Shown: in pieces, positions 20,275 to 35,427 of the stretch
Layout of the letters: each line of letters starts with the position of its first letter
Position numbering within the stretch: the stretch's first letter is position 1
Source of the DNA: Aeromicrobium erythreum
Lineage (GTDB): Bacteria; Actinomycetota; Actinomycetes; Propionibacteriales; Nocardioidaceae
Assembly: GCF_001509405.1 (NCBI RefSeq)
Contig: NZ_CP011502.1
Location: 1,488,001-1,552,000 of the forward strand
Length of the DNA stretch: 64,000 nt
Direction: 5' to 3'
Program-made: the position numbers and the translations under genes
Notes under the pieces: generated by a model
Seen by the model: the letters and a program-made list of their open reading frames with translations, nothing else
Told to the model about the DNA's origin: nothing
Database searches by the model: none

Positions 20275-20293
20275 CAGATCCTCGACGGCACGG

Positions 20294-20323
20294 GAGCCAG
20301 GGTGTCTACGGTCACCCTGGCTC
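20294..20323 (+). terminator. terminator after ilvE
   Basis: A perfect 11-base stem, GAGCCAGGGTG and its complement, with an eight-base loop, ending 19 bases before the -10 box of the next gene. Confidence 0.8.
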
Positions 20324-20353
20324 TTGTGCGAGAGGTCTCGCTACTATATCGGC

Positions 20354-22405: not shown

Positions 22406-22443
22406 CACGTGCGCCGCCGAGCGCACGTGAGCGGTCCTATAGT
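22406..22443 (+). promoter_or_regulatory. promoter and operator of the ImmA/IrrE-like gene
   Basis: A perfect 9-base inverted repeat, CACGTGCGC and GCGCACGTG, occupies 22406-22429 with a six-base loop. It lies directly before a TATAGT -10 box at 22438-22443, over the place of a -35 box, so a bound protein would block or help RNA polymerase. Confidence 0.6.
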
Positions 22444-22497
22444 CGCGACATCCCTGTGCCGGCAGGGGAACGTCCACGAGACGTCTGGGGGACGAGG

Positions 22498-23007
22498 GTG
22501 AAGGACGCGTCGACGGCAGTGGTGCGGGCAGTCCGCTCACGGCTGCGCGACGCACGCCTGCGTCGTCACCTGCGGGGTCTCCTGCGCCGGCTCGACCTCC
22601 CGCTTCCCCTCGAGGTCGGGCTGCTGTGCGAGCGGCTGGGTCAGCTGCGGGGGACGCCCATCGCCCTCCTGGAGTGGGAGCTCGAGCCGACGGGGCCGTC
22701 GGGGATGCTCGTCTCGCGCGTGGACGAGGACGTCATCGTCTTCCAGTCGCGCACCTCGCGGGCCCACCAGGCACACATCATCCTGCACGAGGTCGGCCAC
22801 ATCGTGGCTCAGGACCTCGACGGCGTGGCCCTGCCGCAGCCCCTGCTCAGGACCTCCTACACCGCTCGCGACGAACGCGACGCCGAGGTCATCGCGTCGA
22901 CCATCATGCACCGGGCGCTGTCGATGACCCGCCGCCTGGACCACGTGGCGCAGGTCGGCGGACGGTCCGTGCAGAGCAGCCTCGTGCTGTGGGACGGCTG
23001 GTCGTGA
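22498..23007 (+). CDS. ImmA/IrrE-type metallopeptidase domain protein
   Basis: 169 aa from the GTG at 22498, which follows a purine-rich GGGGGA. The zinc-peptidase motif HEVGH is at 97-101, with a likely third ligand Glu130 in ERDAEVIAS. ImmA/IrrE enzymes cut repressor proteins of the XRE type. No XRE gene is adjacent, but one lies 2 kb downstream on the other strand. The gene is coupled by GTGA to a membrane protein often found beside such peptidases in actinobacteria. Confidence 0.8.
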   Translation: MKDASTAVVRAVRSRLRDARLRRHLRGLLRRLDLPLPLEVGLLCERLGQLRGTPIALLEWELEPTGPSGMLVSRVDEDVIVFQSRTSRAHQAHIILHEVGHIVAQDLDGVALPQPLLRTSYTARDERDAEVIASTIMHRALSMTRRLDHVAQVGGRSVQSSLVLWDGWS

Positions 23008-24113
23008 ACGACCTCGGATGGGTGGCCGTCGTGACCCTGCTGGTGGGCGCGGCCTGGACCTTGCCCGCGCTCGCGCGCCAGAGCTTCCGGGACCCCATGC
23101 GACTCACGCTGTTCGCCTCGATGCTGCTGCTGGGGCTGGGCAACCTGCTCTCCCGCCCGCCGGTCATCGCGGTCGTGGACGCCAGGACGACGGTCGGCGC
23201 CACGAAGCTCACCTACAACGTGCTGATCCTGGTGGGGCTGTGCCTGATGATCGCCTTCCTGCGCGAACGGCCGCTCGTCGGGGCGCGCGCCCTGCGCCGC
23301 TGGGAGGTCCTGCTGTGCGTCGCCTGCGTCGGCGGCCTGCTCGTCGTGACGGCAGGCATCGACCCGTCGCTGCGCAACCACACCCTCGCGGCCCCGTTCC
23401 TGCAGGACGAGCACGTCCGCGCCTTCTACAACGTCGGCAACACCTATCTCCTGGCGGGCTACGCGGCCTGCGCCGTGCTCGCCGGGCGCCAGACCCGGCG
23501 CTCCGCCGGCGTGGTGCGGGTGGCCCTGGCGACGATCGCGGTCGGCCTCGCGGGACTGGCGCTCAGCTGCGTGGCACGGTTGGTGTGGGTCGACGTCGTC
23601 GCGACCCGACCGGGCGAGGAGGTCTTCGACGACCAGGACGTGCTCGCCTTCGCCCTCGTGGCGACGATCGTGGTGTGCGTGGGCATGAGCCTCCCGGCCG
23701 TGCGCAGCGTCGTGGCGATGCTGGGCGAGGTGCGCGGGCACCGCCGTCGCTGCCGCGGACTGCGGGAGCTCTGGACCCGTCTGGTCGAGATCCATCCCGA
23801 CCTCGTCCTCGACGGGCTCACCTACCGCGGCCCGGCGGTCGCGACGGGCTACGCCCTCGCGACCTACCGGCGCTACGTCGAGTGCCGTGACGGGCTGGTC
23901 CGCGTGGGGGCGCTGGTGCCGGGGGCGCCGGAGGACTCGGCAGGACCAGCCGAGGCTGCCCAGGCGCTCGACGCCGTGCTGCGAGGAGCTCCCGTGGGGG
24001 AGCCGGTGGTCTGGGGCGTGCACGAGAGGTACGAGGACGACGTCGACGCCCTCGTGCGTCTCTCGAGCGCCCTGCGCTCGCTGCGGAGCCGGGCGCCGGC
24101 CCTGGCCCGGTGA
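23004..24113 (+). CDS. seven-helix membrane protein, DUF6545/MAB_1171c-like
   Basis: 369 aa. Seven hydrophobic segments fill residues 1-245, in the spacing of the family annotated as MAB_1171c putative transporters. A cytosolic C-terminal domain follows, from about 250 (LRELWTRLVEIHPDL). The same pairing with an ImmA/IrrE peptidase is common in mycobacteria and streptomycetes. Whether it transports or senses something is not known. The GTG overlaps the peptidase stop. Confidence 0.7.
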   Translation: MNDLGWVAVVTLLVGAAWTLPALARQSFRDPMRLTLFASMLLLGLGNLLSRPPVIAVVDARTTVGATKLTYNVLILVGLCLMIAFLRERPLVGARALRRWEVLLCVACVGGLLVVTAGIDPSLRNHTLAAPFLQDEHVRAFYNVGNTYLLAGYAACAVLAGRQTRRSAGVVRVALATIAVGLAGLALSCVARLVWVDVVATRPGEEVFDDQDVLAFALVATIVVCVGMSLPAVRSVVAMLGEVRGHRRRCRGLRELWTRLVEIHPDLVLDGLTYRGPAVATGYALATYRRYVECRDGLVRVGALVPGAPEDSAGPAEAAQALDAVLRGAPVGEPVVWGVHERYEDDVDALVRLSSALRSLRSRAPALAR

Positions 24114-24121
24114 CCCAGAGG

Positions 24122-25030
24122 TCAGGGCACGAGCACGAGCTTGCCGCGGACGCCGCCTGCCTCGAGTCGCGCGTGTGCCCGGCCGGCCGCCTCGAGCGGG
24201 AGGCTCTCGACGTCGGGGAGCACGCCCGCGCCGCTCGCCGCGCGGGCGACGACGTCCTGGAGGTCCTCGCGCGAGATCTCGACGCTCGTGAGCCGCACGT
24301 CGACGCTGGGGTGGTCCTCAGGCGTGGGGGCGCTGAACGGCGTGATGGTCACGAAGCGACCACCCTCGCGTACCGCGTCCACCAGCGTCGGGACGCCCGC
24401 GGTGTCGATCACGACGTCGTAGGTGCCGGGACCGATCGTGTCCGGGCTCGTGCGCACGGTGCCGAGGGCCTCGGACTGCTCGAGGCGCACGGCCCACACG
24501 TCCGCGTCGCCCGGTCGGACCACGAGGTCGGTAGGTCCCTGCCGTGCGAGGAGCCGACCGGCCACGTGGGAGCCGACGCTGCCCTGGGCGCCCACGAGCA
24601 GCACGCGGTCCTCCGCGCCCAGGCCGGCGAGGCGCAGCGTCTGGACGGCGGTCACGCCAGCGAGCGGGAGCGCGGCGGCGACCAGCAGGTCGAGCGACGC
24701 CGGCACCGCGACGGCGAAGGCGGGGTCGAGCGCAACACGCTCGGCCATCGAGGCGATCCCGGTGCCCAGGGGTGCGGTCATCGCCGCCACGCGGTCGCCG
24801 GCCGCGAACCCCGACCCGTGCGGCGCGCGGAGCACGGTGCCGGCGAGGTCCCAGCCCAGCAGCGTGGTGCCCTCCGTCGGGATCTGGCCCGAGCGGGTGG
24901 CGAGGTCGACCGGGTTGACCGCCGCGCCGGCGACGTCGACGACCAGCAGGTCGTCCCGGTCGGGCTCGGGGACGTCGAGCACCTCGACGACCTCGGGGCC
25001 GCCGGGGGCGTGGAAGCCCACGGCCCTCAC
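24122..25030 (-). CDS. NADPH:quinone-reductase-like medium-chain oxidoreductase
   Basis: 302 aa from the GTG at 25030, which overlaps the stop of the XRE gene (GTGA). The long reverse frame further upstream is not coding. VRAVGFHAPGGPEVVEV and the NPVD stretch are typical of zinc-free quinone oxidoreductases. The nucleotide motif is VGAQGSVGSHVAGRLL. There are no zinc cysteines. It probably reduces a quinone or enone with NADPH. It is co-transcribed with the XRE regulator. Confidence 0.85.
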   Translation of the reverse strand: MRAVGFHAPGGPEVVEVLDVPEPDRDDLLVVDVAGAAVNPVDLATRSGQIPTEGTTLLGWDLAGTVLRAPHGSGFAAGDRVAAMTAPLGTGIASMAERVALDPAFAVAVPASLDLLVAAALPLAGVTAVQTLRLAGLGAEDRVLLVGAQGSVGSHVAGRLLARQGPTDLVVRPGDADVWAVRLEQSEALGTVRTSPDTIGPGTYDVVIDTAGVPTLVDAVREGGRFVTITPFSAPTPEDHPSVDVRLTSVEISREDLQDVVARAASGAGVLPDVESLPLEAAGRAHARLEAGGVRGKLVLVP

Positions 25031-25455
25031 GGCTGACCGGTCTCGCGTCGGGACGCGTCGAGCGCGTCCATGATGGTGAGGAGCTGGCTGCGTGCCTCCG
25101 GCGTGAGCTCGCCGGCGCGCATGGCGATCGAGCGCACCTGGCGGTCCGCCAGCGCCTGCGCCCAACCGGCGTCGTCCTCCTCCTCGCCGGTGAGGGCGGC
25201 CATCGAGATGGGCAGCGACGCCGCGCGCGGCTTGAAGTAGTGCACGAGCGCGGAGAGGACGGAGACCGTGGGGTTGGTCTGCGCGCCGCTGCGCAGCGCC
25301 GCGAGGTAGCTGCGCGAGATGGTGACGTCGTGCTCGGGGCTCTCGCTGATGGCCTGGGCGACCTCGGCGGTGGAGGGCTCGCGCATGCGACCGACGGGAT
25401 CGCGCGTGGCGGCGTCGGCGAACCAGGCGTTCAGGCGTTCGGCGAGGGTCGACAT
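25027..25455 (-). CDS. XRE-family regulator, EspR-like
   Basis: 142 aa from the ATG at 25455, with GGGAG just upstream; a longer frame has a proline repeat with no coding character. A helix-turn-helix of the lambda-repressor type spans about 27-75 (TAEVAQAISESPEHDVTISRS). The C-terminal half is helical and may dimerise. It faces the cyclitol cluster across a 24-base palindrome, so it is a candidate regulator of that cluster and of itself. It is also a possible target of the ImmA/IrrE peptidase nearby (inference). Confidence 0.75.
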   Translation of the reverse strand: MSTLAERLNAWFADAATRDPVGRMREPSTAEVAQAISESPEHDVTISRSYLAALRSGAQTNPTVSVLSALVHYFKPRAASLPISMAALTGEEEDDAGWAQALADRQVRSIAMRAGELTPEARSQLLTIMDALDASRRETGQP

Positions 25456-25548
25456 GGTCACTCCCGGGGTGAGAGGTCGCCGTGGGGACAGCGGCGGGGA
25501 CAGCGGCGGGGACACGGTGGGGGAACGACAGGGAGTGGCGTTCCTGTG

Positions 25549-25580: not shown

Positions 25581-25604
25581 TGTGTGCCACTATAGTGGCA
25601 CACA
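25581..25604. promoter_or_regulatory. 24-bp perfect palindrome, candidate operator
   Basis: Two arms of TGTGTGCCAC and its complement flank a central TATA. The whole is symmetric over 24 bases. It lies just behind a promoter-like TTGACA/CATAAC pair and before the XRE gene on the other strand. The centre also reads as a TATAGT box on both strands. Confidence 0.75.
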
Positions 25605-25714: not shown

Positions 25715-26998
25715 ATGCGCAGCGCCACGGCCCTCACCCAGGGGCTCCACCACCACGTCCACCGCACGCGGGGCGACCTCCCGTCGCCCTCGACCGCCGT
25801 CCCCGACCCGACCCGCACGCCACGGCTCGGAGCCGACGCGTCGTGGACGGTCGAGGCGGTGCAACAGGTCCGCTACCACGTCGTGCGGTCCCAGGGCCTG
25901 TTCGACGTCGACAACACGACGCTGCTCGACGGCTGCGCCGACGCGCCCATGGCCGCGGGGGAGCGCAGACTCGTGGTCGTCGACAGCGCGGTCGACGCCC
26001 TGCACGGCGACCGGATCCGTACCTGGTTCGACGCCCACGACGTCGCCGCGACGATCGTCGCCCTGCGCGCGGACGAGGAGGTCAAGCAGTGGGACTCCGT
26101 CTCGGCGGTGATCGACGCCATGAACGCCTTCGGGATCGACCGGCGCCGTGAGCCGGTGCTCGCGGTCGGCGGGGGTGTGCTGACCGACGTGGTCGGCTTC
26201 GCGGCCAGCCTGTACCGGCGCGGCACGCCGTACCTGCGCATCCCGACCACGCTGATCGGTCTCGTGGACGCCGGTGTCGGGGTCAAGACGGGGGTGAACT
26301 ACGCGGCCGGCAAGAACCGGGTCGGGACCTACGCGGCGGCCAAGGCGACGTTCCTGGACCGCACCTGGCTCAGCACCCTCGACCCGCGGCACGTGTCCAA
26401 CGGCCTCGCGGAGGTGCTCAAGGTCGCCCTGATGAAGTCGGCAGAGCTGTTCGAGCTGCTCGAGCGCTCGGGTCGCGACCTGCTCGAGGACCGGCTGCTG
26501 GGCAGCACGCCGGAGCTCGACGCCGCGGCCGCGACCGTCGTGGCCGAGTCGATCCACCTGATGCTGGAGGAGCTGCAGCCCAACCTCTGGGAGTCCACCC
26601 TCGAGCGCTGCGTCGACTACGGGCACACCTTCAGCCCGGTCATCGAGATGCGCGCGCTCCCCTCCCTGCTTCACGGCGAGGCCGTTGCCGTCGACATGGC
26701 GCTGACCACCGTGATCGGCGAGCTCCGCGGCTACGTCTCGATCGAGCAGTCGGCGCGGGTCCTCGCCGTCATGCGCCAGCTGGGACTGCCCACCTGGGAC
26801 GACGTGCTGGCCGAGCCGGGGCTGCTGGCGTCCGCCCTGCGCGACACCGTGCGCCACCGCGACGGCCAGCAGCGGCTACCCCTGCCCGTCGGGATCGGGG
26901 GCCACCGCTTCGTCAACGACGTCACCGACGCCGAGCTGCAGAGGGCGCTGGAGCTGCTGCGCTCGCGCTCCCGGGACCACGCGCAGGAGACGCGATGA
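25715..26998 (+). CDS. sedoheptulose-7-phosphate cyclase (EEVS/EVS type)
   Basis: 427 aa from the ATG at 25715, with AGGAG five bases upstream. It belongs to the sugar phosphate cyclase superfamily, related to 3-dehydroquinate synthase. The NAD motif is AVGGGVLTDVVGFAAS (150-165). The core runs IPTTLIGLVDAGVGVK (176-191). Zinc ligands are Glu233, His304 (DYGHTFSP) and His320 (LLHGEAVAVDM). The stretch LEELQPNLWE just before the DYGHTFSP site resembles valiolone synthases rather than aroB. The product is probably 2-epi-5-epi-valiolone or 2-epi-valiolone; I cannot choose between them by eye. It is the first gene of a chain of overlapping genes up to 35427. Confidence 0.85.
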   Translation: MRSATALTQGLHHHVHRTRGDLPSPSTAVPDPTRTPRLGADASWTVEAVQQVRYHVVRSQGLFDVDNTTLLDGCADAPMAAGERRLVVVDSAVDALHGDRIRTWFDAHDVAATIVALRADEEVKQWDSVSAVIDAMNAFGIDRRREPVLAVGGGVLTDVVGFAASLYRRGTPYLRIPTTLIGLVDAGVGVKTGVNYAAGKNRVGTYAAAKATFLDRTWLSTLDPRHVSNGLAEVLKVALMKSAELFELLERSGRDLLEDRLLGSTPELDAAAATVVAESIHLMLEELQPNLWESTLERCVDYGHTFSPVIEMRALPSLLHGEAVAVDMALTTVIGELRGYVSIEQSARVLAVMRQLGLPTWDDVLAEPGLLASALRDTVRHRDGQQRLPLPVGIGGHRFVNDVTDAELQRALELLRSRSRDHAQETR

Positions 26999-27734
26999 CG
27001 ACGGCCGTGGTCGTGGGCGGCTCCACCGGCGTCGGTCGCGGCGTCGCCGACGCGTGGGCCGCTGCCGGCTGCCGGGTGCTGACGCTCAACCGGTCCCGTC
27101 CGGTGGGCCCGGGGCCGAGCTGCTGGAGCACGTCGCGGTCGACCTCGCCGATCCCGACGCCGCGCGCGTCGTCCTGCGCTCGCTGCCCGACGAGGTCGAC
27201 CTGCTCTGCTACTCGGCCGTCTACTTCACCGCCGGACGTGCGCCGTTCGCCGAGACCACCGAGCGCGACTGGGAGGACCAGTGGCGCATCAACGTGCACG
27301 GGCTGTGGCTGGCGCTGCACAGCCTGCTGCCCGCCCTGCGACGTGCGGCGCCCTCGGTCGTGCTCAGCATCTCCTCGGAGGTCGTCTACAACGCGGGCCC
27401 GCTGCGGGCCGGCTACGCGGCCACGAAAGCCGCGGCCCGTGGGCTGGTCGAGTCGCTCGCGCAGGAGGAGGACCCGGACGTCGTGCGCGTCGTCCAGGCA
27501 CTGCCGGCGCAGATGGTGGACTCGCCGGGCATCAGGGCGCGCCGCCCGGACGACTTCGACTACGCCGACTACATGACGGGTGACGACTTCGGCCCGCTCG
27601 CCCGCGACCTCGTGGAGCGACGTGCCGCCGACCTCGCCGGTGAGGTCCTCGTGGTGGACCACGGCGGCGCCTACCGTCCGCTCGGCGACACGCTGCCGAC
27701 GTCGCAGAGCCGACCGGCGGGGGTGTCGGCATGA
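26995..27734 (+). pseudogene. SDR oxidoreductase, frameshifted
   Basis: The ATG at 26995 overlaps the cyclase stop. The first frame gives the Rossmann start TTAVVVGGSTGVGRGVADAW, then turns to nonsense after residue 40. The rest of the SDR (ELLEHVAVDLADP, then SISSEVVYNAG, then YAATKAAARG with the YxxxK pair) is in another frame, ending at 27734. A -1 shift at CCCGGGG (27108-27114) joins the two into a normal protein of about 246 residues. The cause may be a real mutation, a sequencing error in the G run, or programmed frameshifting. The downstream half overlaps the next gene by ATGA. In known C7-cyclitol pathways an SDR reduces a ketone. Confidence 0.8.
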
Positions 27735-28375
27735 GCGTGCGGCACGCGGAGGCGGACGCGTACCTGTTCGACATGGACGGCACGCTCGTGGACTCCACGT
27801 CGGTGGTCGAGCGGACCTGGGCCGACTTCAGCCGGCGGCACGGCCTCGACGTGGAGGAGGTGCTGGCCTACGCGCACGGTCGTCCGACGGCCAGCACGAC
27901 CGCCCACTTCCTCGAGGACGCCGACGTGGCTGCCGACGAGGCGATCCGGCTGGCCGCCCTGGAGGAGGAGACCGTCGACGGCATCGTCGAGGTCCCGGGC
28001 GCGGCGGCCCTCGTCGCCGGGCTGCCCGAGGACCGGTGGGCCGTCGTCACCTCGGCCGGCCGACGTCTCGCCGAGCGGCGCCTGGACGCCGCCGGCGTCC
28101 CGCGTCCTGCCGTCCTCGTGACGGCCGACGACGTGGCACGGCCCAAGCCCGACCCGGAGGGCTACCTGCTGGCTGCACGGCTCCTCGGCGTCCCCGTCGA
28201 CGCGTGCGTCGCCTTCGAGGACTCGGAGGCGGGGGTCCGGGCCGCGGTCGCGAGCGGCGCGCGCACGGTCGTGGTCGGCACGCTGTCGTCCCACGACGGG
28301 ACGCTGCCACGTGTCGTGGACCTCAGCGGTCCCGACGTCCCCGGCGCCGTCGCCGCCACGAGGGTCCCGTCGTGA
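27731..28375 (+). CDS. HAD-superfamily sugar-phosphate phosphatase
   Basis: 214 aa. The nucleophile motif is LFDMDGTLVD (12-21), with Asp14 and Asp16. The later motifs are VVTSAGRR and RPKPDPEGYLLAARLLG, followed by AFEDSEAGVRAA. It resembles small sugar-phosphate phosphatases of the YniC/YfbT type. In this cluster it probably removes phosphate from a cyclitol phosphate. It is coupled to its neighbours by ATGA and GTGA overlaps. Confidence 0.85.
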   Translation: MSVRHAEADAYLFDMDGTLVDSTSVVERTWADFSRRHGLDVEEVLAYAHGRPTASTTAHFLEDADVAADEAIRLAALEEETVDGIVEVPGAAALVAGLPEDRWAVVTSAGRRLAERRLDAAGVPRPAVLVTADDVARPKPDPEGYLLAARLLGVPVDACVAFEDSEAGVRAAVASGARTVVVGTLSSHDGTLPRVVDLSGPDVPGAVAATRVPS

Positions 28376-29388
28376 CGGCGCTCGACACCCGCGGCCCTAC
28401 GGCACGCACGCGAGCGACCGCGACGTTCGCCGTCGACGTCGGCGGCACCTGGACGAGGAGCCGGCCCCTGGAGGACGGCGCACCCACCGAGCGCGTGCCC
28501 ACACCGAGCATCCTGCGGCGCCCTGGAGTCCCGGTGGCGGTGCTGCGGGACGACCTCGTCGCGCTGCTCGCCCGTCTCGCGCCGCCGGGTGCGTGCGTGG
28601 CGGTCTCGCTCGGCGCCGCCCTCGACGAGCGCACCGGCATCGTGCACGGCTCGGCGCCGCTGTGGGGGGCGGCCGACGACCCCGTCGATCTGGGCGCCGC
28701 GCTCGCCCGACGCCGTCCCGATGTCGCCTGGCACCTCGTCAACGACGTCACGGCGGCCGTCACCGACCTCGCCGTGCGTCACGCACCCGCAGGGGTGCGG
28801 CACGTGGGCTACCTGACCGTCAGCAGCGGCATTGCTTACCGGTGTCTCGACGTCCCGCGCGCACGGATCGAGATCGACGAACGCGGGCTGCAGGGCGAGG
28901 TCGGCCACCTCGTGGCCCAGGTCGACGCCGAGGACGCCGACCTGCTGCGCCTGCGCTGCGAGTGCGGGGGAGCGGCCCACCTCGCCGCGATCTCCTCCGG
29001 TCCGGGCATCGCGCGGCTGGTCGTGCAGCGCGCGGGTGCCACGTCGGACCCGGTCGCCAGGCTTCGCGCGGGCCTCGGCGCAGGGGAGGACTGGGCCCAG
29101 GGGGTCCTCCGCTCCGCCGTGGCCCCGGTCGCGGCGCTGGTCCGCACCCTGTGGACCCTCGACCCGCACCTCGACCTGCTGGCCCTCGGCGGCGGTGTGG
29201 TCGAGGGACTCGGCGCCGTCTACGAGCACACGCTCCGCGGGCTGCTGGCCGTGCCCGCGTCGTACGCCGACCCGCCGCGGGACGACGCGTGGTTCGACGA
29301 GCACCTGCGGTGCTGCGTGCCGGGTGACGTCGACCTGCTGGCCGGCGCCGCCGCAGCCGTGTCCGGAGCAGCGGAGGCGGTCCGATGA
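28372..29388 (+). CDS. ROK-family kinase, probable cyclitol kinase
   Basis: 338 aa. The phosphate-binding start is FAVDVGGTWTRS (19-30), the catalytic Asp is Asp125 in LVNDVTAAVTD, and GEVGHLV (175-181) is typical. The ROK zinc motif is partly changed: Cys196 and Cys198 remain (RCECGG), but the third Cys position reads AAH. Kinases of this family phosphorylate C7-cyclitols in validamycin (ValC) and acarbose (AcbM) pathways. The same role here is inferred from the cyclase neighbour. Confidence 0.8.
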   Translation: MTALDTRGPTARTRATATFAVDVGGTWTRSRPLEDGAPTERVPTPSILRRPGVPVAVLRDDLVALLARLAPPGACVAVSLGAALDERTGIVHGSAPLWGAADDPVDLGAALARRRPDVAWHLVNDVTAAVTDLAVRHAPAGVRHVGYLTVSSGIAYRCLDVPRARIEIDERGLQGEVGHLVAQVDAEDADLLRLRCECGGAAHLAAISSGPGIARLVVQRAGATSDPVARLRAGLGAGEDWAQGVLRSAVAPVAALVRTLWTLDPHLDLLALGGGVVEGLGAVYEHTLRGLLAVPASYADPPRDDAWFDEHLRCCVPGDVDLLAGAAAAVSGAAEAVR

Positions 29389-30572
29389 CCAGGGGAGCCG
29401 TCGCGTCGGGGCGCCCCGCGGCACTGGTGCGCGTCGAGCGGCACCGCGCCCTCGTCCGCACGCCCGCCGGCCTGCGGCTGCACAGCCTTCCGACCCCCAC
29501 GCCCGGACCGGGTGAGCTGCTGCTGGCCCCGGAGGTCGTGGGCGTGTGCGGCACCGACCTGCAGATCCTGCGCGGGCTCCGCGCCGACCCCGCCGAGGTG
29601 CTCGGGCACGAGGGGGTCGCTCGCGTCGTCGCCGTCGGACCGGCCGTCGCCGGACCTGCACCTCGCGTCGGGGAGCGCGTGCTCGTCGACCCGACTCACC
29701 CGAGGGACGACACGTTCCTGCTCGGCCACAACGTGGCCGGTCTCTGGGCGGAGCGCGTGGTCGTGCCGGCCACGGCCGTGCGCGACGGGCTCGTGGTGCG
29801 GGCACCCGGCCCCGGGCCCGCCACACCGGCCGGCCCCGACCACGACGCGGCCGTCGTGGCCGCGCTCGCCGAGCCGCTGTCGTCCGTGCTGGAGGGGTAC
29901 CGGGTCGCGACCGACGTGGCCGCCGGCGCACCGTCGACGCTCGTGGTCTGGGGTGGCGGGGTGGTCGGCCGCCTGGCTGTGCGGTGGTGGCGGCACCGCC
30001 GTCCCGACCTGCGGGTCCTCCACGTGCACCGCCCCGGCGAGCCGCCGCTCCTGCCGGAGCCGGGCACGCTGGCCCTCGCCGCGGACGACCAGGACCTCCC
30101 GGCCGTCCTGGTCGGGCTCACAGGTCCCGTGACCGCCGTCGTCGCCACCCCGCGCACGGCATCGCTCCAGGCCGTGGCTGCGCTGGTGGGACTGTGCCGC
30201 GCTGCTCTGACGATCGACCTGCACGCGGGCCTGCCCGCTGGGCCGGTGCGCTGGAACGGCGTCGAGGACGTCGTCGACCTCGCTGCGCTGCGAGCGCGCA
30301 ACCGCGCCGGGCGTCCCGTCGTGCCGGTCGCTCGCACGGTGGGCCGCCGAGGCGCGGCACCGGTGACCTTCGTGGGCCACCGCGGCGTCGCCCCGGCCAC
30401 GCTCCAGCGGGCGGCCCACGTGGTGTCCGGCGACCCGACGGCCTGGGCCGACCTTGTGACGCACCACGTGACGCTCGACGACGCCGTCCGCGCGATCCGT
30501 GCCATGGTCGACGGCGACCGACACGTCGACGGTCGACCGGTCCTGAAGCTCGCCATGAGGATCTCGCGGTGA
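29385..30572 (+). CDS. medium-chain dehydrogenase, catalytic-zinc form
   Basis: 395 aa. Catalytic zinc ligands are Cys55 (GVCGTDL), His75 and Glu76 (LGHEGVARV), with Glu163 (LAEPLSS). The four-cysteine structural zinc loop is absent; residues 101-118 have no Cys. The nucleotide motif is VWGGGVVGRLAVR (188-200). It most likely oxidises or reduces a cyclitol hydroxyl or ketone, like AcbL in acarbose synthesis (inference). ATGA overlaps join it to the kinase. Confidence 0.75.
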   Translation: MTRGAVASGRPAALVRVERHRALVRTPAGLRLHSLPTPTPGPGELLLAPEVVGVCGTDLQILRGLRADPAEVLGHEGVARVVAVGPAVAGPAPRVGERVLVDPTHPRDDTFLLGHNVAGLWAERVVVPATAVRDGLVVRAPGPGPATPAGPDHDAAVVAALAEPLSSVLEGYRVATDVAAGAPSTLVVWGGGVVGRLAVRWWRHRRPDLRVLHVHRPGEPPLLPEPGTLALAADDQDLPAVLVGLTGPVTAVVATPRTASLQAVAALVGLCRAALTIDLHAGLPAGPVRWNGVEDVVDLAALRARNRAGRPVVPVARTVGRRGAAPVTFVGHRGVAPATLQRAAHVVSGDPTAWADLVTHHVTLDDAVRAIRAMVDGDRHVDGRPVLKLAMRISR

Positions 30573-31396
30573 GCGCGGGCGTCGTGGCCGTGGCCCAGTG
30601 GCGGGTCGCCCCCGACCACCGGGAGGCCGTGGTCGGCGTGCTCGCGGCGGGGACCCGGCACGTGCAGCTCGACGTCGGCGGGCCCGGTCGCGGTCCGGTC
30701 CTCGACGACGCGGTGCTCGCCGAGCTGTGCCGTCTGGGCGTCGTCGTCGACGCCCTCGCGGTCAACCGCGCGAACGACCTCGGTCTGCACCGCGACGGGC
30801 GTCCGACGCCGGAGTGCCTCGACCTGTTGCTCGCCACGGTCGGGCTCGCCCGCCGCCACGGGGTCTCTGCGGTCCACGTGCCCAGCTTCCGGGCGAGCGC
30901 GATCGTCGACGCGCCGTCGCGCGACGCGACGGCGGAGGTGCTGGCGCGCTGCGCGGGCGAGGGCGGGGCCGACCTGCTCGTGCTGACCGAGTCGACGCTC
31001 GACGCCGCCGATGCCGTCGCGCTGGTCTCGGCCACCGGCGCGTCGACCGTCCGCGTGGTCGCCGACACCGGCAACCTGCTCGACGCCGGCCGCGACCCGT
31101 TCGCCTTCGTCGACACCTGCCGCGCGCACGGCGTGCTGGCGCCCTCGGTCCACGTGAAGGTACCGACGGACGTGCGAGCCGACGAGGTCGCGGCCCGCAC
31201 CCGCACGATCCTCGCGCAGGTCGGCGACGGTGACGTCCTGCTCGAGAACGACTATCGCGGTCGCCCCGACCTGCTGGCCGCCGACGTCGCCGCCGCCTAC
31301 GACCGCGCCGCCGCCCGCCGGCACTCTCTCGCCGGAGCGACCCTCGACCCGCCGACCCTCCGGCGCACCCGCCCGACCCAAGGAGCGTCACGATGA
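30569..31396 (+). CDS. TIM-barrel sugar-phosphate isomerase/epimerase-like protein
   Basis: 275 aa from the GTG overlapping the preceding stop. The xylose-isomerase-like barrel shows in VSAVHVPSFRAS, LLVLTESTLDAADA and VVADTGNLLDAGRDP. HVKVPTDV and VLLENDYRG are further strand ends that would carry metal ligands. In acarbose synthesis the cyclitol-phosphate epimerase AcbO does a similar C2 inversion. That comparison is by role and context, not by alignment. Confidence 0.75.
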   Translation: MSAGVVAVAQWRVAPDHREAVVGVLAAGTRHVQLDVGGPGRGPVLDDAVLAELCRLGVVVDALAVNRANDLGLHRDGRPTPECLDLLLATVGLARRHGVSAVHVPSFRASAIVDAPSRDATAEVLARCAGEGGADLLVLTESTLDAADAVALVSATGASTVRVVADTGNLLDAGRDPFAFVDTCRAHGVLAPSVHVKVPTDVRADEVAARTRTILAQVGDGDVLLENDYRGRPDLLAADVAAAYDRAAARRHSLAGATLDPPTLRRTRPTQGASR

Positions 31397-33636
31397 CCGC
31401 CACCGCCCTGCTCGACGCCCGAGCCGCCCAGGAGCGTCCGCGCCCAGGAGTCCGCCTGGACTCGCTCACCGGACTGCGCTTCCCCGCGGCGCTCGCCGTG
31501 CTGCTGTTCCACAGCGCGCTGCCCGAGCTGCCGTTGTTCGCCGACCGCGGGGTCCAGGAGGGCTACTACCACTGGCTCTCCCAGGCGGGCGGCCTCGGCG
31601 TCACGTTCTTCTTCCTGCTCAGCGGCTTCGTCCTGACGTGGTCGGCGAGCGCCGGTGACCGTCCCGCGTCGTTCTACCGCCGACGGTTCGTCAAGATCCT
31701 GCCGCTGTACTACGTCACCGCGCTGCTCGCCGTGCTGGTGATGCACGCGGGGTCGGTGCCGTGGCGCGACCTGGCGTCCTACCTGACCATGACGCAGGTC
31801 TGGCCGCCCGACTACCCGCTCAACTTCTCCGTGCTGGCGCCGGGCTGGTCGCTCGCGACGGAGGCCTTCTTCTACCTCACCTTCCCCCTCCTCGTCGGCC
31901 TGGTGGTCGGCCGGGGGACCCGACGGGCCGCCACCGTGCTCGCCGTGTCGGTGCTGGCCGTCGTGGCCGTGCCGCTCGTGGCGACCCTCCTGCCGGAGGG
32001 GAGCCAGCGGCTCTCGAACGAGCCCGACGTCTCGGGCCTGCAGTACTGGTTCGCCTACGTGCTGCCGCTGACCCGACTCCCCGACTTCGGCGTGGGCATG
32101 GCGCTCGCGGTGCTGGTGCGTGGCGACGCGCTCCCGCGGCTGTCCCTGCGCTGGTCCTTCGCCGCCCTGGCCGGGGCCTACGTGCTCGCGCTGTCCGCGC
32201 CCGTCCTGCTCGCGCAGCGCGCCGTGCTGGTCGTGCCCTGCGCGCTGATCATCGCCGCGGCCGCCCAGCGCGACCTGGCCGGTCGACCCTCGGTGTGGCG
32301 TGCCAGGCCGCTGCGCTGGCTCGGTGAGGTCTCCTTCGCGTTCTACCTGCTGCACTTCATCGTCCTCGACGCGCTGGACGTGCACGTGCTGCACGGACCC
32401 ACCGACTCCGTCGCGGCAGCGGTCGCGTACCTGCTGGGTGCGGTCGCGCTCACGGTCCTCGGCGCCGGAGCGCTGTACCACTGGGTCGAGATGCCCCTGG
32501 TCCGCGCCTACGGCGGCCGGACCGTGCGCGGCCTGCGTCCTCGCCGCAGCATCGAGTCGCCGGCCGTGCGGGCGTCGGGCGAGCCGATCGGACCGACGTC
32601 CGTCCGCAGCGTCCTGCTCCCGGGACCGCGGGAGGTGACGCTCGTGCAGCGCCCCGCCCCGGTGCCGGGGCAGGGCGACCTCCTGGTGCGGGTGCGCCTG
32701 CTGGGCCTGTGCGGCACCGACCTGGGCTTCTACGACGGCAGCAGCTCCTACCTGCACGACGGGCTCGCCTCGTATCCCTTCGTACCCGGCCACGAGTGGA
32801 CCGGCGAGGTCGTCGCCGTCGGCGCGGACGTGGACGACGCCTGGGTCGGACGCCGCGTCGCCGGGCACAACATCAGGGCCTGCGGGCGCTGCGAGCACTG
32901 CGCGGCGCGACGGATCACGCACTGCCCCGAGCGCCGCGAGATCGGCGTGCTCGGAGACGGCCCTGGTGCCGCGGCGGACCTCGTCGTCGTGCCGGTCTCG
33001 ACCGTGGTGGCCGTGCCCGACGCGCTCTCGGACACCTCGGCGGCGCTGCTGGAGCCGGCGTCCGCCGCCGTCCACGCGATGCACCGCGTCGACGTCCGCG
33101 CGGTCGACCGGGTGGCTGTCGTCGGCGCGGGGACCCTGGGTCTCGTGGCCGCCCAGGCCGCCCGCGCACGAGGCGCCGACGTGCTCGTCGTCGAGCCGCG
33201 CAAGGAGGCGCGCGAGCTCGCGGCCAGCCTCGGGCTCGTCGCCGTCGAGCGCCCGGACGGGTCGCACGGCGAGTCCTTCGACGTCGTCGTCGAGGCCTCG
33301 GGCTCGACCGTGGGGCTGGTGTCGGCCATCGGGCTGGCCGCGTCCGGCGGTCGGGTGGCGCAGCTCGGCACCCCGCACCACGCCGTCGACGGCGTCCCGG
33401 TCGCCGACCTCGTCGTCCGTGACCTGAGCGTCGTCGGCGTCCTGTCCGGCGTCGGGCACTGGGAGGAGCTCGTCGACCTGGTGGTCGCCGGGCACGTCGA
33501 CCTCGACGCGATGGTCGACCGGGTGGTACCGCTGGAGGACGTGCGGTCCGCCTACGAACGCCTGGCCGACCCCCTGCGGGTGAGGCCCAAGGTGCTGCTC
33601 GACTTCATGACCCACCCCACCACCGACCTGTCCTGA
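31393..33636 (+). CDS. fusion: membrane acyltransferase 3 plus zinc medium-chain dehydrogenase
   Basis: 747 aa in one uninterrupted frame. Residues 20-375 are an acyltransferase-3 domain: LDSLTGLRFPAALAVLLFHS, FFFLLSGFVLTW, about ten membrane helices, then LGEVSFAFYLLHFIVLD. A linker of about 30 residues rich in Arg leads to a complete zinc dehydrogenase from about residue 404. It has Cys440 (LCGTDLG), His467-Glu468 (PGHEWTG), and structural cysteines 497, 500, 503 and 511. The nucleotide motif is VVGAGTLGLVAAQAAR. No stop or ribosome site separates the halves, although GTG codons in the linker could be internal starts. The pairing suggests reduction or oxidation of a cyclitol linked to its acylation at the membrane (inference). 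Confidence 0.85.
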   Translation: MTATALLDARAAQERPRPGVRLDSLTGLRFPAALAVLLFHSALPELPLFADRGVQEGYYHWLSQAGGLGVTFFFLLSGFVLTWSASAGDRPASFYRRRFVKILPLYYVTALLAVLVMHAGSVPWRDLASYLTMTQVWPPDYPLNFSVLAPGWSLATEAFFYLTFPLLVGLVVGRGTRRAATVLAVSVLAVVAVPLVATLLPEGSQRLSNEPDVSGLQYWFAYVLPLTRLPDFGVGMALAVLVRGDALPRLSLRWSFAALAGAYVLALSAPVLLAQRAVLVVPCALIIAAAAQRDLAGRPSVWRARPLRWLGEVSFAFYLLHFIVLDALDVHVLHGPTDSVAAAVAYLLGAVALTVLGAGALYHWVEMPLVRAYGGRTVRGLRPRRSIESPAVRASGEPIGPTSVRSVLLPGPREVTLVQRPAPVPGQGDLLVRVRLLGLCGTDLGFYDGSSSYLHDGLASYPFVPGHEWTGEVVAVGADVDDAWVGRRVAGHNIRACGRCEHCAARRITHCPERREIGVLGDGPGAAADLVVVPVSTVVAVPDALSDTSAALLEPASAAVHAMHRVDVRAVDRVAVVGAGTLGLVAAQAARARGADVLVVEPRKEARELAASLGLVAVERPDGSHGESFDVVVEASGSTVGLVSAIGLAASGGRVAQLGTPHHAVDGVPVADLVVRDLSVVGVLSGVGHWEELVDLVVAGHVDLDAMVDRVVPLEDVRSAYERLADPLRVRPKVLLDFMTHPTTDLS

Positions 33637-33646
33637 GGAGGACCTC

Positions 33647-34210
33647 ATGAAGATCTACGTCGTCCACGGCTACTCCGCCGCCCCGCACGACCACTGGTTC
33701 CCCTGGCTCGCCGAGAAGCTGCGCGCCGAGGGCCACGTCGTGGAGGTCGTGCCCATGCCCGACTCCACGAACCCGTCGCGCGACGCGTGGGAGCGCACCC
33801 TCGACGAGCGCGTCGGCGACGTCGACGAGGAGACGCTGCTCGTGACCCACAGCCTCGGCACGGTCACCGTGCTGCGCTGGCTCGCCGCGCGCCCCGCGCC
33901 CTGGCGCCTGCGGGGCCTCGTCGCCGTCTCGGGTTTCCAGGGGCCGATCGCCGCGGTCCCCGAGCTCGACGACTACCTCGCCGAGCCGCTCGACCCGGCG
34001 GACGTCGCGCGGGTCTGCGAGGCGGTCGACGCGCGCGTCGGCATCTACTCCGACGACGACTCGATCGTCCCTCCCGAGGCGTCGAAGGCGCTGGCCGCAC
34101 AGCTCGGCGCGCGCACCCGCGAGGTCCCGGGCGGCGGTCACTTCCTCGCCGACGAGGGCTTCACGGAGCTGGCCGAGGTCCTGGAGGCCGTCGAGGACCT
34201 CACGCGGTGA
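33647..34210 (+). CDS. RBBP9/YdeN-type alpha/beta hydrolase
   Basis: 187 aa, with GAGGAGG before the ATG. VVHGYSAAPHDHWFPWL opens the fold. The nucleophile is Ser69 in THSLGT, the acid is in YSDDDSIVP and the His in GGGHFLA. Such small hydrolases have little known substrate. It follows the fusion gene by ten bases and overlaps the MFS gene, so it is part of the cluster transcript. Confidence 0.8.
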   Translation: MKIYVVHGYSAAPHDHWFPWLAEKLRAEGHVVEVVPMPDSTNPSRDAWERTLDERVGDVDEETLLVTHSLGTVTVLRWLAARPAPWRLRGLVAVSGFQGPIAAVPELDDYLAEPLDPADVARVCEAVDARVGIYSDDDSIVPPEASKALAAQLGARTREVPGGGHFLADEGFTELAEVLEAVEDLTR

Positions 34211-35427
34211 CCGCGCTGCGGCTCGGCCTGCTCGGCGTGGCGACGTTCGTCTACGTCACCTTCGAGCTGCTCCCCGTGGGCCTGATCGGCGACATCGCGG
34301 AGGACCTCGACGTCTCCCAAGGGCGGGTCGGGCTGCTCGTCAGCGGGTACGCGGTCGTGGCGGGGCTGTGCACCATCCCGGGCGTCCGCCTGGTGGCGAG
34401 GTGGCCCCGGGCCCGGGCGGTCCAGGGCGCCCTGGCCGTGCTGCTCGTCGCCGCCGTCGTGGCGACCGTCGCGACCAGCTACGCGGCGATGGTGCTGAGT
34501 CGGGTGCTCGCGGCGCTGACCCACGGCATCCTCTGGTCGCTCGTGGCCCCGGCCGCGGCGTCGCTCGTGCCGCGCGAGCGTGCGGGCATGGCGACGGCCG
34601 CGGTGTTCGGTGGCGCGACGGCGGCCTCGGTCGTCGGCTCGCCCCTGGCCACGTTCGTGGGGGAGGCCACGGACTGGCGCGTGGCGGCCGGCGGTCTCGC
34701 CGCGCTCGTGGCACTCACGCTCGTGGGCCTCGTCCTGACGCTGCCGGCCGAGCCGTCGACACCGGCCCCTTCGGTGGCCGCCGACCCGCTCGACCAGGCG
34801 GGGAGCGAGCGCGGGCTGGGCCGTCTGCTCGGTCCGGCCGCCGGACCGTTGGTGGTGCTCTACGCCCTCGCCGTCGTGGTCGTGTCGGCCCACTTCACGT
34901 CGTTCACGTACGTCGCGCCGATCGCGCGCCGGGCCCTGGACGGCGTCGACGTGCCCCTGCTGCTCGCCGGGTTCGGCGTGGCCGGAGCGGCGGCGACGCT
35001 GGTCGTCGGCCGGGTGCTCGACGTCCGTCCGGTGGGCACCACCGTGACCGCGGTTGCGGCCATGCTCGTGGGGACCGCGGGCCTGGCCGCCGCCCTCGGC
35101 CTCGGCGCCGGCTCCTCCGTGCTGGTGGGTCTGGTGCTCTTCGCGGCCGTGGCGGTCTGGGGAGCTGCCTTCGCCGCCATCGGCCCCTGCTACCAGGCCG
35201 GCGTCATGCGCCTCGCCGGTGACCGGGTCGACACCGCGTCGGCGGTCTACGTGACCTGCTTCCAGGTGGGGATCGCCACCGGGTCGGGACTCGGTGCGCT
35301 GCTCGTCGGGATCGACGTCGAGGTGCTGCCCGTCGTGTCGGCGTCGGCGTGCGCCGTCGCCCTCGCCCTGACCCTCCTGCGGCGCGACGTCTACGCCCCG
35401 AGGACGACCGTCGGGACGCGCGCCTGA
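34207..35427 (+). CDS. MFS transporter, sugar-efflux (AraJ/SotB) type
   Basis: 406 aa from the GTG overlapping the hydrolase stop. Twelve membrane segments are visible. FVYVTFELLPVGLIGDIAEDLDVSQGRVGLLVSGYAV matches the first two helices of the drug and sugar efflux group. RVLAALTHGILWSLVAPAAASLV is helix 4. As the last gene of the coupled chain it is the likely exporter of the cluster's product (inference). Confidence 0.8.
   Translation: MTALRLGLLGVATFVYVTFELLPVGLIGDIAEDLDVSQGRVGLLVSGYAVVAGLCTIPGVRLVARWPRARAVQGALAVLLVAAVVATVATSYAAMVLSRVLAALTHGILWSLVAPAAASLVPRERAGMATAAVFGGATAASVVGSPLATFVGEATDWRVAAGGLAALVALTLVGLVLTLPAEPSTPAPSVAADPLDQAGSERGLGRLLGPAAGPLVVLYALAVVVVSAHFTSFTYVAPIARRALDGVDVPLLLAGFGVAGAAATLVVGRVLDVRPVGTTVTAVAAMLVGTAGLAAALGLGAGSSVLVGLVLFAAVAVWGAAFAAIGPCYQAGVMRLAGDRVDTASAVYVTCFQVGIATGSGLGALLVGIDVEVLPVVSASACAVALALTLLRRDVYAPRTTVGTRA

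What the first reader, a model, noticed from the sequence alone, without database searches (positions are those of the whole stretch)
25715..35427. A coupled C7-cyclitol-like biosynthetic cluster with its own exporter
Nine genes run in one direction with ATGA or GTGA overlaps at nearly every junction. They encode a sedoheptulose-7-phosphate cyclase, an SDR, a HAD phosphatase, a ROK kinase, a zinc dehydrogenase, a TIM-barrel isomerase, an acyltransferase-dehydrogenase fusion, a small hydrolase and an MFS exporter. The enzyme types mirror the cyclitol part of the acarbose and validamycin pathways (AcbC, AcbM, AcbO, AcbL, AcbN). There is no aminotransferase, nucleotidyltransferase or glycosyltransferase. 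The product may therefore be a free or acylated cyclitol rather than a pseudo-sugar antibiotic (inference).
Basis: partly seen in the sequence, partly recalled or inferred. Interest (0 to 1): 0.82.

Follow-up and report, generated by a model that had tools for sequence, protein, structure and literature searches.

The report
Probable acylated-cyclitol biosynthesis gene cluster
An actinobacterium carries a 15-kb block of genes, shared in order with distantly related actinobacteria, that probably builds and exports a small sugar-like ring molecule (the ring unit found in the diabetes drug acarbose, but likely decorated with acyl groups instead of sugars) and seems to bring its own regulators and control sites with it.

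Summary
In detail: nine same-strand genes at 25715-35427, with 4-nt overlaps at 7 of 8 junctions. Two corrections. The SDR gene is frameshifted near 27,110 in this assembly. The unit is also larger, about 20.35-35.43 kb, and adds two enzymes (α/β-hydrolase, quinone-reductase-like MDR), a second acyltransferase-3, and an EspR-like XRE regulator, an ImmA/IrrE-like protease and a MAB_1171c-family membrane protein.

The cyclase groups with EEVS/ValA, not DDGS or DHQS (25 of 25 discriminating columns). The kinase, dehydratase-type MDR, SDR and epimerase match acarbose acbM-L-N-O by family and order; the 'isomerase' is predicted to have a ketose-3-epimerase fold. No glycosyl- or nucleotidyltransferase was found in the cluster. 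The core order cyc-SDR-HAD-ROK-MDR1-TIM-MDR2-MFS recurs exactly in 14 of 50 named loci. The block is inserted between ilvE and an aspartase-like gene; its cyclase is in 3 of 49 genus genomes. A promoter/operator-like 12-mer has only two sites in the 3.63-Mb genome, both here.

Best reading: an exported, O-acylated, oxidised valienol-type C7-cyclitol under cluster-specific control. Product and activity are untested; my searches found no published product. New variant of a known kind.

The parts
20341..20352 (+). cluster-specific promoter/operator-like element (CTACTATATCGG) before the first operon
   Evidence: 12-mer CYACTATAKHSG, built to fit this site and 25587-25598, has no third site in the 3.63-Mb genome; 5-mer CTATA occurs at only 3 sites in the 64-kb window
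20354..21571 (+). acyltransferase-3 family membrane acyltransferase AT3b (start inferred)
   Evidence: Pfam PF01757, 100.8 bits, on the longer ORF 20147-21571; AT3b homologs in 4 of 4 extended Streptomyces/Kitasatospora clusters
21568..22398 (+). alpha/beta-hydrolase (start inferred, GTGA overlap with AT3b)
   Evidence: Pfam Abhydrolase_1, on the longer ORF of this frame; homologs in type A loci
22437..22444 (+). weaker copy of the CTATA element, in front of the protease gene
   Evidence: does not fit the 12-mer
22456..23007 (+). ImmA/IrrE-like metallopeptidase
   Evidence: H111 E112 G114 H115 and E144 invariant in the 13 sequences aligned; Peptidase_M78 only sub-threshold, E=0.017
22989..24113 (+). 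MAB_1171c-family multi-helix membrane protein with DUF6545 tail (putative sensor)
   Evidence: NCBIfam NF042915 201 bits, cut-off 100; only copy found in G000 and G083, none in cluster-free G037; model weak, pLDDT 68
24122..25030 (-). MDR3, quinone-oxidoreductase-like MDR (possible enone reductase)
   Evidence: Pfam ADH_N + ADH_zinc_N_2; NCBIfam quinone_pig3-like, below cut-off; homologs in type A loci, in two extended clusters at the far end
25027..25461 (-). XRE/EspR-like transcriptional regulator
   Evidence: phmmer to EspR 4ndw E=6e-10; mean column identity 81% over the 14 sequences aligned; Pfam HTH_3 sub-threshold
25581..25604 (.). 24-bp perfect palindrome with the CCACTATAGTGG core between the divergent XRE and cyclase genes (putative operator/promoter)
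   Evidence: the full palindrome is not kept in the Streptomyces loci, only the CYACTATA-like core
25715..26998 (+). [quoted passage not shown]
   Evidence: Pfam; 4p53 (ValA) 400 bits vs 5tpr (DDGS) 261 vs best DHQS 139; tree; 25/25 columns
26995..27734 (+). AcbN-type SDR reductase, frameshifted at about 27105-27117 in this assembly; intact in the two nearest relatives
   Evidence: C-part dN/dS 0.094 vs L004, 0.203 vs L005
27731..28375 (+). HAD phosphatase (AcbJ-like role inferred)
   Evidence: Pfam PF00702 81 bits; NCBIfam sugar phosphatase, below cut-off
28372..29388 (+). ROK-family cyclitol 7-kinase (AcbM-type)
   Evidence: Pfam ROK, hit in a longer ORF of this frame; 39-58% identity to type A and acb-type ROK genes other than the nearest relative
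29385..30572 (+). MDR1, AcbL-type cyclitol dehydratase/dehydrogenase
   Evidence: Pfam ADH_N; 37-46% to 25 homologs other than the nearest relative, with conserved (95% or more) C55-G-T-D and G74-H-E
30569..31396 (+). AcbO-type 2-epimerase, TIM barrel of the ketose-3-epimerase fold
   Evidence: alignment A1 of 22 sequences with invariant E141, D166 and nearly invariant H195, E226; model and fold search
31393..33636 (+). fusion: acyltransferase-3 (about aa 1-395) + zinc MDR2 polyol-type dehydrogenase (about aa 401-747)
   Evidence: Pfam; open through 747 aa in both near relatives; AT3 not next to MDR2 in the other type A loci
33647..34210 (+). small serine hydrolase, found only in the Aeromicrobium-group version
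   Evidence: Pfam PF06821 96.5 bits; hits only in L005 and L069 among the loci searched
34207..35427 (+). MFS exporter
   Evidence: Pfam MFS_1 123.6 bits; PRK03545/Cmx-CmrA-like, below cut-off

Best explanation
A specialised-metabolite cluster, acquired horizontally (inferred). Shown: gene content, EEVS subfamily, conserved order, insertion site, private promoter-like element. Inferred from acarbose enzymology: sedoheptulose 7-phosphate is cyclised by the EEVS to 2-epi-5-epi-valiolone, phosphorylated at O-7 by the ROK kinase (AcbM role), epimerised at C-2 by the TIM barrel (AcbO role), dehydrated to valienone 7-phosphate by MDR1 (AcbL role) and reduced to valienol 7-phosphate by the SDR (AcbN role). 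The HAD enzyme then removes the phosphate. Inferred with less support: the zinc dehydrogenase MDR2, and perhaps MDR3, adjust the oxidation state of the free cyclitol; two AT3 membrane enzymes O-acylate it; hydrolases trim acyl groups; and the MFS pump exports it. In Aeromicrobium the oxidation and one acylation step are fused in one polypeptide. The EspR-like XRE protein acts on the CYACTATA elements in front of the operons; the ImmA/IrrE-like protease and the MAB_1171c membrane protein probably relieve it on a signal, as in ImmA/ImmR or IrrE/DdrO systems (recalled).
For: EEVS identity. Module matches acbMLNOC in family and order; enzyme steps from PMC9200736 and PMC7081202 (passages). Epimerase fold and metal-type residues. 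Core order in 14 of 50 loci. Every window gene but the small hydrolase, with edge genes reshuffled, in 4 of 4 extended Streptomyces/Kitasatospora clusters. AT3 copies 2-4 per cluster region in 6 of 6 genomes. Insertion between ilvE and an aspartase-like gene. Private element: no third site in the genome; strict CYACTATA in 13 of the 14 XRE-carrying named loci and in 1 of the other 36 (L048), and in the second intergenic region of 9 of 11 loci against a mean of 0.04 in shuffles.
Against: No metabolite or enzyme data. Real Acb sequences were not held; acb-type loci L037-L039 and L043 served as stand-ins. AT3 substrate, acyl group and number of acylations are not predictable from sequence. The SDR frameshift, if real, would stop this strain at valienone 7-phosphate. 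Two of 16 type A loci (Tsukamurella) lack XRE, ImmA and the element, so the regulator is not essential to the pathway. The perfect palindrome is only in the window (10 and 9 of 12 pairs in L004 and L005; at best 7-9, the background level, in the 14 other loci tested), and 2 of 300 random 500-bp pieces of the window also held a perfect 24-mer palindrome. ImmA is sub-threshold in Pfam, and the membrane-protein model is weak (best Foldseek E=0.03).
Confidence: 0.62

Rival explanations
1. The product is a free, non-acylated valienol-type cyclitol (valienol, 1-epi-valienol, streptol or validone class); the AT3 enzymes modify the cell surface or a self-resistance target instead.
For: Acarbose strains leak free valienol and 1-epi-valienol after dephosphorylation (PMC7081202). 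Free (+)-streptol is bioactive on plant roots (PMC8599487). Proteobacterial relatives L046, L048, L050 and L052 have cyc-ROK-MDR1-SDR-TIM-MFS with no AT3, HAD or MDR2 assigned.
Against: AT3 homologs lie near the cyclase in all 16 type A loci, 2-4 copies in the cluster region of the six genomes counted, and one is physically fused to a cluster dehydrogenase in three genomes.
Confidence: 0.22
2. It is a gabosine/COTC-type pathway: MDR2 oxidises the C-4 hydroxyl of valienol to a 2-hydroxymethyl-enone and AT3 esterifies O-7.
For: Gabosines are keto-carbasugars of Streptomyces with a hydroxymethyl or methyl side chain (PMC7961443, passages and reference titles); COTC is a crotonyl ester of that class and gabosines were reported from Streptomyces cellulosae (both recalled). 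An S. cellulosae genome (L018/L071) carries the cluster. No gabosine gene cluster turned up in the paper searches.
Against: By hand CIP analysis (no call) the recalled (4R,5R,6R) configuration of COTC/gabosine C does not equal 4-dehydro-valienol, so an extra inversion or a skipped epimerisation would be needed. Whether the sequenced S. cellulosae strain makes gabosines is unknown.
Confidence: 0.15
3. A precursor module that supplies valienol-7-phosphate to glycosyltransferases encoded elsewhere, giving a pseudo-oligosaccharide.
For: The core is the acb module; of the acb-type loci, L039 has two GT4-type genes and L037 and L043 have genes of the same two clusters (L038 does not).
Against: No GT, nucleotidyltransferase or AcbU-type second kinase was found among the cluster's genes; HAD, MDR2, AT3 and the exporter already complete a small-molecule logic. 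Genes beyond the last homolog in the extended Streptomyces flanks were not family-scanned, and the rest of the genome was not searched for GTs.
Confidence: 0.07
4. The window's copy is a decaying, non-functional cluster.
For: The SDR is frameshifted.
Against: The other cluster genes have no internal stops. The SDR part behind the shift is conserved (dN/dS 0.094 against L004, 0.203 against L005). The indel lies in a GGGCCCGGGG run, where assembly errors are common (recalled).
Confidence: 0.1

Closest known systems
Acarbose acb cluster, acbKMLNOC part (Actinoplanes sp. SE50/110)
   Same: Same five enzyme families for the route to valienol 7-phosphate; M-L-N-O-C collinear in the acb-type loci; a HAD phosphatase (AcbJ) dephosphorylates valienol 7-phosphate in vitro (PMC9200736, PMC7081202, passages).
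   Different: Different gene order (C-N-HAD-M-L-O); no AcbR/AcbS/AcbI-type genes found in the cluster, no ABC exporter; adds MDR2, MDR3, AT3 x2, hydrolases, an MFS pump and a regulatory trio.
EEVS clusters of Nocardia, Rhodococcus and some Streptomyces ('type B' here: L009, L014, L016, L020-L022, L024-L027, L030, L049)
   Same: Cyclase 59-71% identical; HAD, and where the contig reaches far enough ROK and MDR1, plus MDR2/MDR3-like genes and an MFS pump.
   Different: In L026: a VOC/glyoxalase-family protein, a KAS-III-like protein, a luciferase-like oxidoreductase and a TetR regulator, and no TIM or AT3 hit; no CYACTATA-like 8-mer in the 12 loci.
Streptol/kirkamide pathway of Candidatus Burkholderia kirkii
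   Same: EEVS-initiated C7-cyclitol without a pseudo-oligosaccharide of the acarbose kind (PMC8599487, passages read).
   Different: Sequences not compared here; products are a glucoside and an N-acetylated aminocyclitol.
Gabosines / COTC (KD16-U1) of Streptomyces
   Same: Keto-carbasugars (PMC7961443), some acylated (recalled).
   Different: No gene cluster found in the papers searched; stereochemistry does not follow directly.
ImmA/ImmR (ICEBs1) and IrrE/DdrO (Deinococcus) regulation
   Same: XRE-type DNA-binding protein encoded near an ImmA/IrrE-type metallopeptidase.
   Different: Here an EspR-like regulator plus a MAB_1171c membrane protein; cleavage untested (comparison recalled).

Membership tests
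[quoted passage not shown]
   Pfam 116.9 and 85.9 bits
[quoted passage not shown]
   51-row clade with ValA 94/92; DDGS clade 12 rows 99/97; DHQS outside. The EEVS fork is drawn open and ValA is a long branch
[quoted passage not shown]
   25 of 25 columns that separate the 50 other EEVS-clade rows from 11 DDGS-clade rows (ValA itself has 22 of 25). The published 14-residue fingerprint (mentioned in PMC4426668) was not spelt out in the passages read, so not tested as such
[quoted passage not shown] excluded as EVS | not testable with these tools
   No characterised EVS sequence was included
acb-type valienol 7-phosphate module (AcbC,M,O,L,N) | All five enzyme families present and collinear relatives | tested here: met
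   Direct comparison with the SE50/110 proteins not possible (not held)
acb-type valienol 7-phosphate module (AcbC,M,O,L,N) | All five genes intact in the window | tested here: not met
   SDR frameshifted in this assembly; intact in L004/L056 and L005/L057
Pseudo-oligosaccharide cluster (acarbose, validamycin) | Nucleotidyltransferase, (pseudo)glycosyltransferase, aminotransferase in the cluster | tested here: not met
   None among the cluster's genes by Pfam; the neighbouring class-IV aminotransferase ilvE lies outside and is present in cluster-free genomes
Mycosporine-like amino acid cluster | DDGS + O-methyltransferase + ATP-grasp ligase | tested here: not met
   Not in this cluster; such a set lies at another place in the same genome (L054)
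Gabosine/COTC pathway | Produces a gabosine; required by a known producer | not testable with these tools
   Only genome co-occurrence in an S. cellulosae strain; producer status recalled
ImmA/IrrE-XRE protease-repressor switch | Metallopeptidase motif and nearby XRE regulator | tested here: inconclusive
   Motif invariant in 13 of 13 aligned, EspR-like XRE, but Pfam M78 E=0.017, below its cut-off; cleavage not tested

The most novel reading that the evidence does not exclude
The cluster makes an acylated carbasugar that acts as a diffusible signal: the MAB_1171c membrane protein senses it (or a matching cue), the ImmA/IrrE-like protease then destroys the EspR-like repressor, and the CYACTATA promoters fire. 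This would be a transferable, self-regulating hormone-like system built on a C7-cyclitol, with a membrane-sensor/protease/repressor relay that I do not know from other biosynthetic clusters (recall; not searched in the literature beyond).
Probability: 0.1. Interest if true: 0.88.

Novelty: new variant of a known kind. Interest (0 to 1): 0.6.

Why it matters
It defines, with borders set by an empty site and by conservation, a family of C7-cyclitol clusters seen in six actinobacterial genera that carry acyltransferases rather than glycosyltransferases. Together with the orphan keto-carbasugars of Streptomyces it gives a directly testable gene set for acylated carbasugar biosynthesis. It also links a cluster-specific promoter element to an EspR-like/ImmA-like/MAB_1171c cassette, which offers a way to switch on silent members. 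The AT3-dehydrogenase fusion suggests that oxidation and acylation act on one compound.

Tried and rejected
Cyclase as DHQS or DDGS: rejected by tree, scores and columns. Amino-DHQS and EVS references were not in the tree, so those two were not tested directly (a 2-deoxy-scyllo-inosose synthase scored 87 bits).

Cluster as part of a MAA (sunscreen) pathway: rejected; the genome's MAA-type set is elsewhere.

Published equivalent: paper searches (listings seen) gave no paper describing this cluster or a gabosine cluster; the library holds only CC-licensed papers.

Product by stereochemistry: my hand CIP check did not support COTC/gabosine C as a direct derivative of valienol; kept as a rival only.

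Membrane protein fold: model pLDDT 68; Foldseek best E 0.03 to 7TM receptors, not significant, so 'sensor' is inference. NCBIfam calls the family 'putative transporter'; a knockout of MAB_1171c in M. abscessus lowered biofilm mass by about half (PMC8707978, passages).

PDB sequence searches for the epimerase and the kinase found nothing. Whole-genome pattern CYACTATAKNSGNC found nothing because it fitted neither window site; CYACTATAKHSG was then built to fit both window sites, so finding them is by construction; the informative part is that no third site exists. The 8-mer variants were learnt from cyc-upstream regions; the second intergenic region is the independent part. In one search the two Tsukamurella loci, the extended locus L074, 12 type B and 12 other loci had none; the proteobacterial loci and some short loci were not in that call but are, where L048 gave one strict hit and XRE-carrying L028 none. 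The shuffles keep base content only. A sigma-70 consensus scan found no promoters and one terminator-like site, as expected by chance. In the dN/dS table the ImmA row was dropped because an indel misaligned it.

Rows dropped or not given: in the tree, L002 and L055-L057 as copies of the window or of L004/L005, and rows under 60% coverage (L049); L054 duplicates L003. Epimerase alignment: L011 failed (stop in the stretch) and L019, L031, L032, L043, L051 were not given. The XRE, ImmA and MAB alignments used 14, 13 and 11 of the available homologs. The greedy ORF map was unreliable because of opposite-strand GC-rich ORFs and was used only as a guide. The named-genome scan finds close relatives only, so counts of 50 are not a census.

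Full report
OBSERVATION. One search confirms the starts and the ATGA/GTGA overlaps at 26995, 27731, 28372, 29385, 30569, 31393 and 34207; the only gap is 10 nt before 33647. Pfam and NCBIfam give sugar-phosphate cyclase, SDR, HAD, ROK, zinc MDR, AT3+MDR fusion, serine hydrolase and MFS. The SDR is not open in one frame: the first 40 residues and the rest lie in different frames, with the break at about 27105-27117. In Aeromicrobium sp. CnD17-E (L004/L056) and a Lake Pavin MAG (L005/L057) the gene is in frame. The part behind the break is still conserved (dN/dS 0.094 against L004 and 0.203 against L005), so the break is recent or an assembly error.

WHAT THE CYCLASE IS. Against solved structures it scores 400 bits to 4p53, 261 to 5tpr and 139 to the best other DHQS-named chain; that 4p53 is ValA is in PMC4426668 (passages), that 5tpr is a DDGS is recalled. 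In a 65-row tree the window lies with ValA in a 51-row clade (94/92); the genome's own second cyclase lies in the DDGS clade (12 rows, 99/97) and its third outside with DHQS. ValA is a long branch and that fork is drawn open, so the exact place of ValA is less sure than the split itself. At all 25 columns that separate EEVS-clade from DDGS-clade rows the window has the EEVS letter; ValA has 22 and 5tpr has the DDGS letter at 23.

WHAT THE OTHER ENZYMES ARE. The acb operon ends ...QKMLNOC (PMC7682106, passages). In L037, L038, L039 and L043 the order ROK-MDR1-SDR-TIM-cyclase is kept (L037 and L039 have a HAD gene between TIM and cyclase), which equates ROK with AcbM, MDR1 with AcbL, SDR with AcbN and TIM with AcbO. 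The published steps are AcbC, AcbM (7-kinase), AcbO (2-epimerase), AcbL (dehydration to valienone 7-phosphate), AcbN (reduction to valienol 7-phosphate), with the HAD enzyme AcbJ able to dephosphorylate valienol 7-phosphate (PMC9200736; PMC7081202; passages read). The TIM protein gives a confident model (pLDDT 87) whose best matches are ketose and ketose-phosphate 3-epimerases and related sugar isomerases; E141 and D166 are invariant and H195 and E226 nearly so in the 22 sequences aligned, which fits the metal quartet of that family (recalled).

CONSERVATION AND BORDERS. One scan of named genomes, which finds close relatives only, gave 50 loci. The order cyc-SDR-HAD-ROK-MDR1-TIM-MDR2-MFS is exact on one strand in 14 of 50: nine Streptomyces, one Kitasatospora, one Streptacidiphilus, one Kribbella and two Tsukamurella. 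L005 has it with the AT3 and the small hydrolase interposed, and L004 is cut by its contig end, which makes 16 'type A' loci. Homologs of XRE and the ImmA-like gene are present in 14 of these 16, not in the two Tsukamurella loci. In the four clusters that I extended downstream (S. cellulosae, S. olindensis, S. toxytricini, Kitasatospora) every window gene except the small hydrolase is found, with the MAB_1171c gene or MDR3 moved to the far end. AT3 genes number 2, 3, 3, 2, 2 and 4 in the cluster regions of the six genomes counted, G294 to G299. The AT3-MDR2 fusion was seen only in the three Aeromicrobium-group genomes.

INSERTION. A cyclase over 95% identical is in 3 of 49 genomes of the genus; the best hit in any other of the 294 family genomes sampled is 43%. 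ilvE and cimA lie 2.3-5.6 kb apart in 35 of 47 genomes with both genes, but 17.5 kb apart in the window's genome and in G083; in the remaining 10 they are on different contigs (5, among them cluster-bearing G121) or far apart (5). In cluster-free G037 and G063 the order is leuB-ilvE-aspartase-like-orf-cimA, so the 15-kb block is an insertion between ilvE and the aspartase-like gene. In a class-wide sample MDR2 at E<=1e-100 was found in 2 of 393 genomes, both of this genus. The block's genes are 71-77% GC against 71-73% for four flanking genes, so composition gives no clear sign of foreign origin. I did not search for integrases or other mobility genes.

REGULATION. XRE resembles EspR (E 6e-10) and is the most conserved of the three regulatory proteins (mean column identity 81% over 14 sequences, against 70% over 13 and 67% over 11; the row sets differ). 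The ImmA-like protein keeps H111, E112, H115 and E144 in 13 of 13, but Pfam M78 is below threshold. The MAB_1171c gene is the only one of its family found in G000 and G083 and none was found in cluster-free G037; the three Streptomycetaceae genomes checked have 3-5. In the window the word CTATA occurs at just three sites, all in front of cluster operons (20344, 22437, 25590), and the last is a 24-bp perfect palindrome. Against this, 2 of 300 random 500-bp pieces of the window also held a perfect 24-mer palindrome, and the Streptomyces loci do not keep it. The 12-mer CYACTATAKHSG, built from two of the sites, has no other site in 3.63 Mb. The strict 8-mer CYACTATA is in 13 of the 14 XRE-carrying named loci and in 1 of the other 36 (L048); looser variants are in 14 of 14 and in none of 2 Tsukamurella, 12 type B and 12 other EEVS loci. 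Outside the cyc-upstream set used to learn it, the strict 8-mer is in the second intergenic region (after MFS) of 9 of 11 type A loci, against a mean of 0.04 in 500 shuffles. Whether it is a -10 box, an operator or both is not known.

MECHANISM AND PRODUCT. Inference: valienol 7-phosphate is made as in acarbose, dephosphorylated, oxidised by MDR2 (nearest NCBIfam models include scyllo-inosose 3-dehydrogenase, below cut-off), possibly reduced by MDR3, acylated by AT3 enzymes and exported. A type B cluster (L026; type B cyclases are 59-71% identical) has a KAS-III-like protein and no AT3 hit, which may be a second, unrelated acyl-transfer solution. The acyl group, the site and the biological role are open. 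A gabosine/COTC-like structure is attractive because such compounds come from Streptomyces and an S. cellulosae genome has the cluster, but the recalled stereochemistry does not fit directly.

VERDICT. New variant of a known kind.

Noticed in passing
G000:C1 about 331,244-336,447 (L054:9244-14447), outside the window: A second sugar-phosphate cyclase of the DDGS clade sits with a HAD hydrolase, an O-methyltransferase, a weakly ATP-grasp-like gene and a D-Ala-D-Ala-ligase-like gene: probably a mycosporine-like amino acid (sunscreen) set, so this genome would have two separate C7-cyclitol pathways.
   Followed up: partly
L046, L048, L050, L051, L052: Salinicola, Phyllobacterium, Agrobacterium vitis, Pantoea and Chimaeribacter carry a compact cyc-ROK-MDR1-SDR-TIM-MFS set; in L051 (insect-associated Pantoea) ROK, MDR1 and SDR matches and the cyclase ORF are split, as if decaying, and the cyclase ORF of L052 is split too.
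   Followed up: no
L026:9056-20471 and similar Nocardia/Rhodococcus loci: Type B EEVS clusters: in L026 a VOC/glyoxalase-family protein, a KAS-III-like protein and a luciferase-like oxidoreductase stand where type A has a TIM epimerase and AT3 enzymes; no product found for them in the paper listings seen.
   Followed up: partly
window 20294-20323: A perfect 11-bp stem-loop with only a short T tail directly behind ilvE may end the ilvE operon and mark the left border of the inserted block (sequence; not reported by the scan).
   Followed up: no
G298:C53:20667-25367: Three MAB_1171c-family genes lie close together in the S. cellulosae genome, away from the cyclitol cluster.
   Followed up: no
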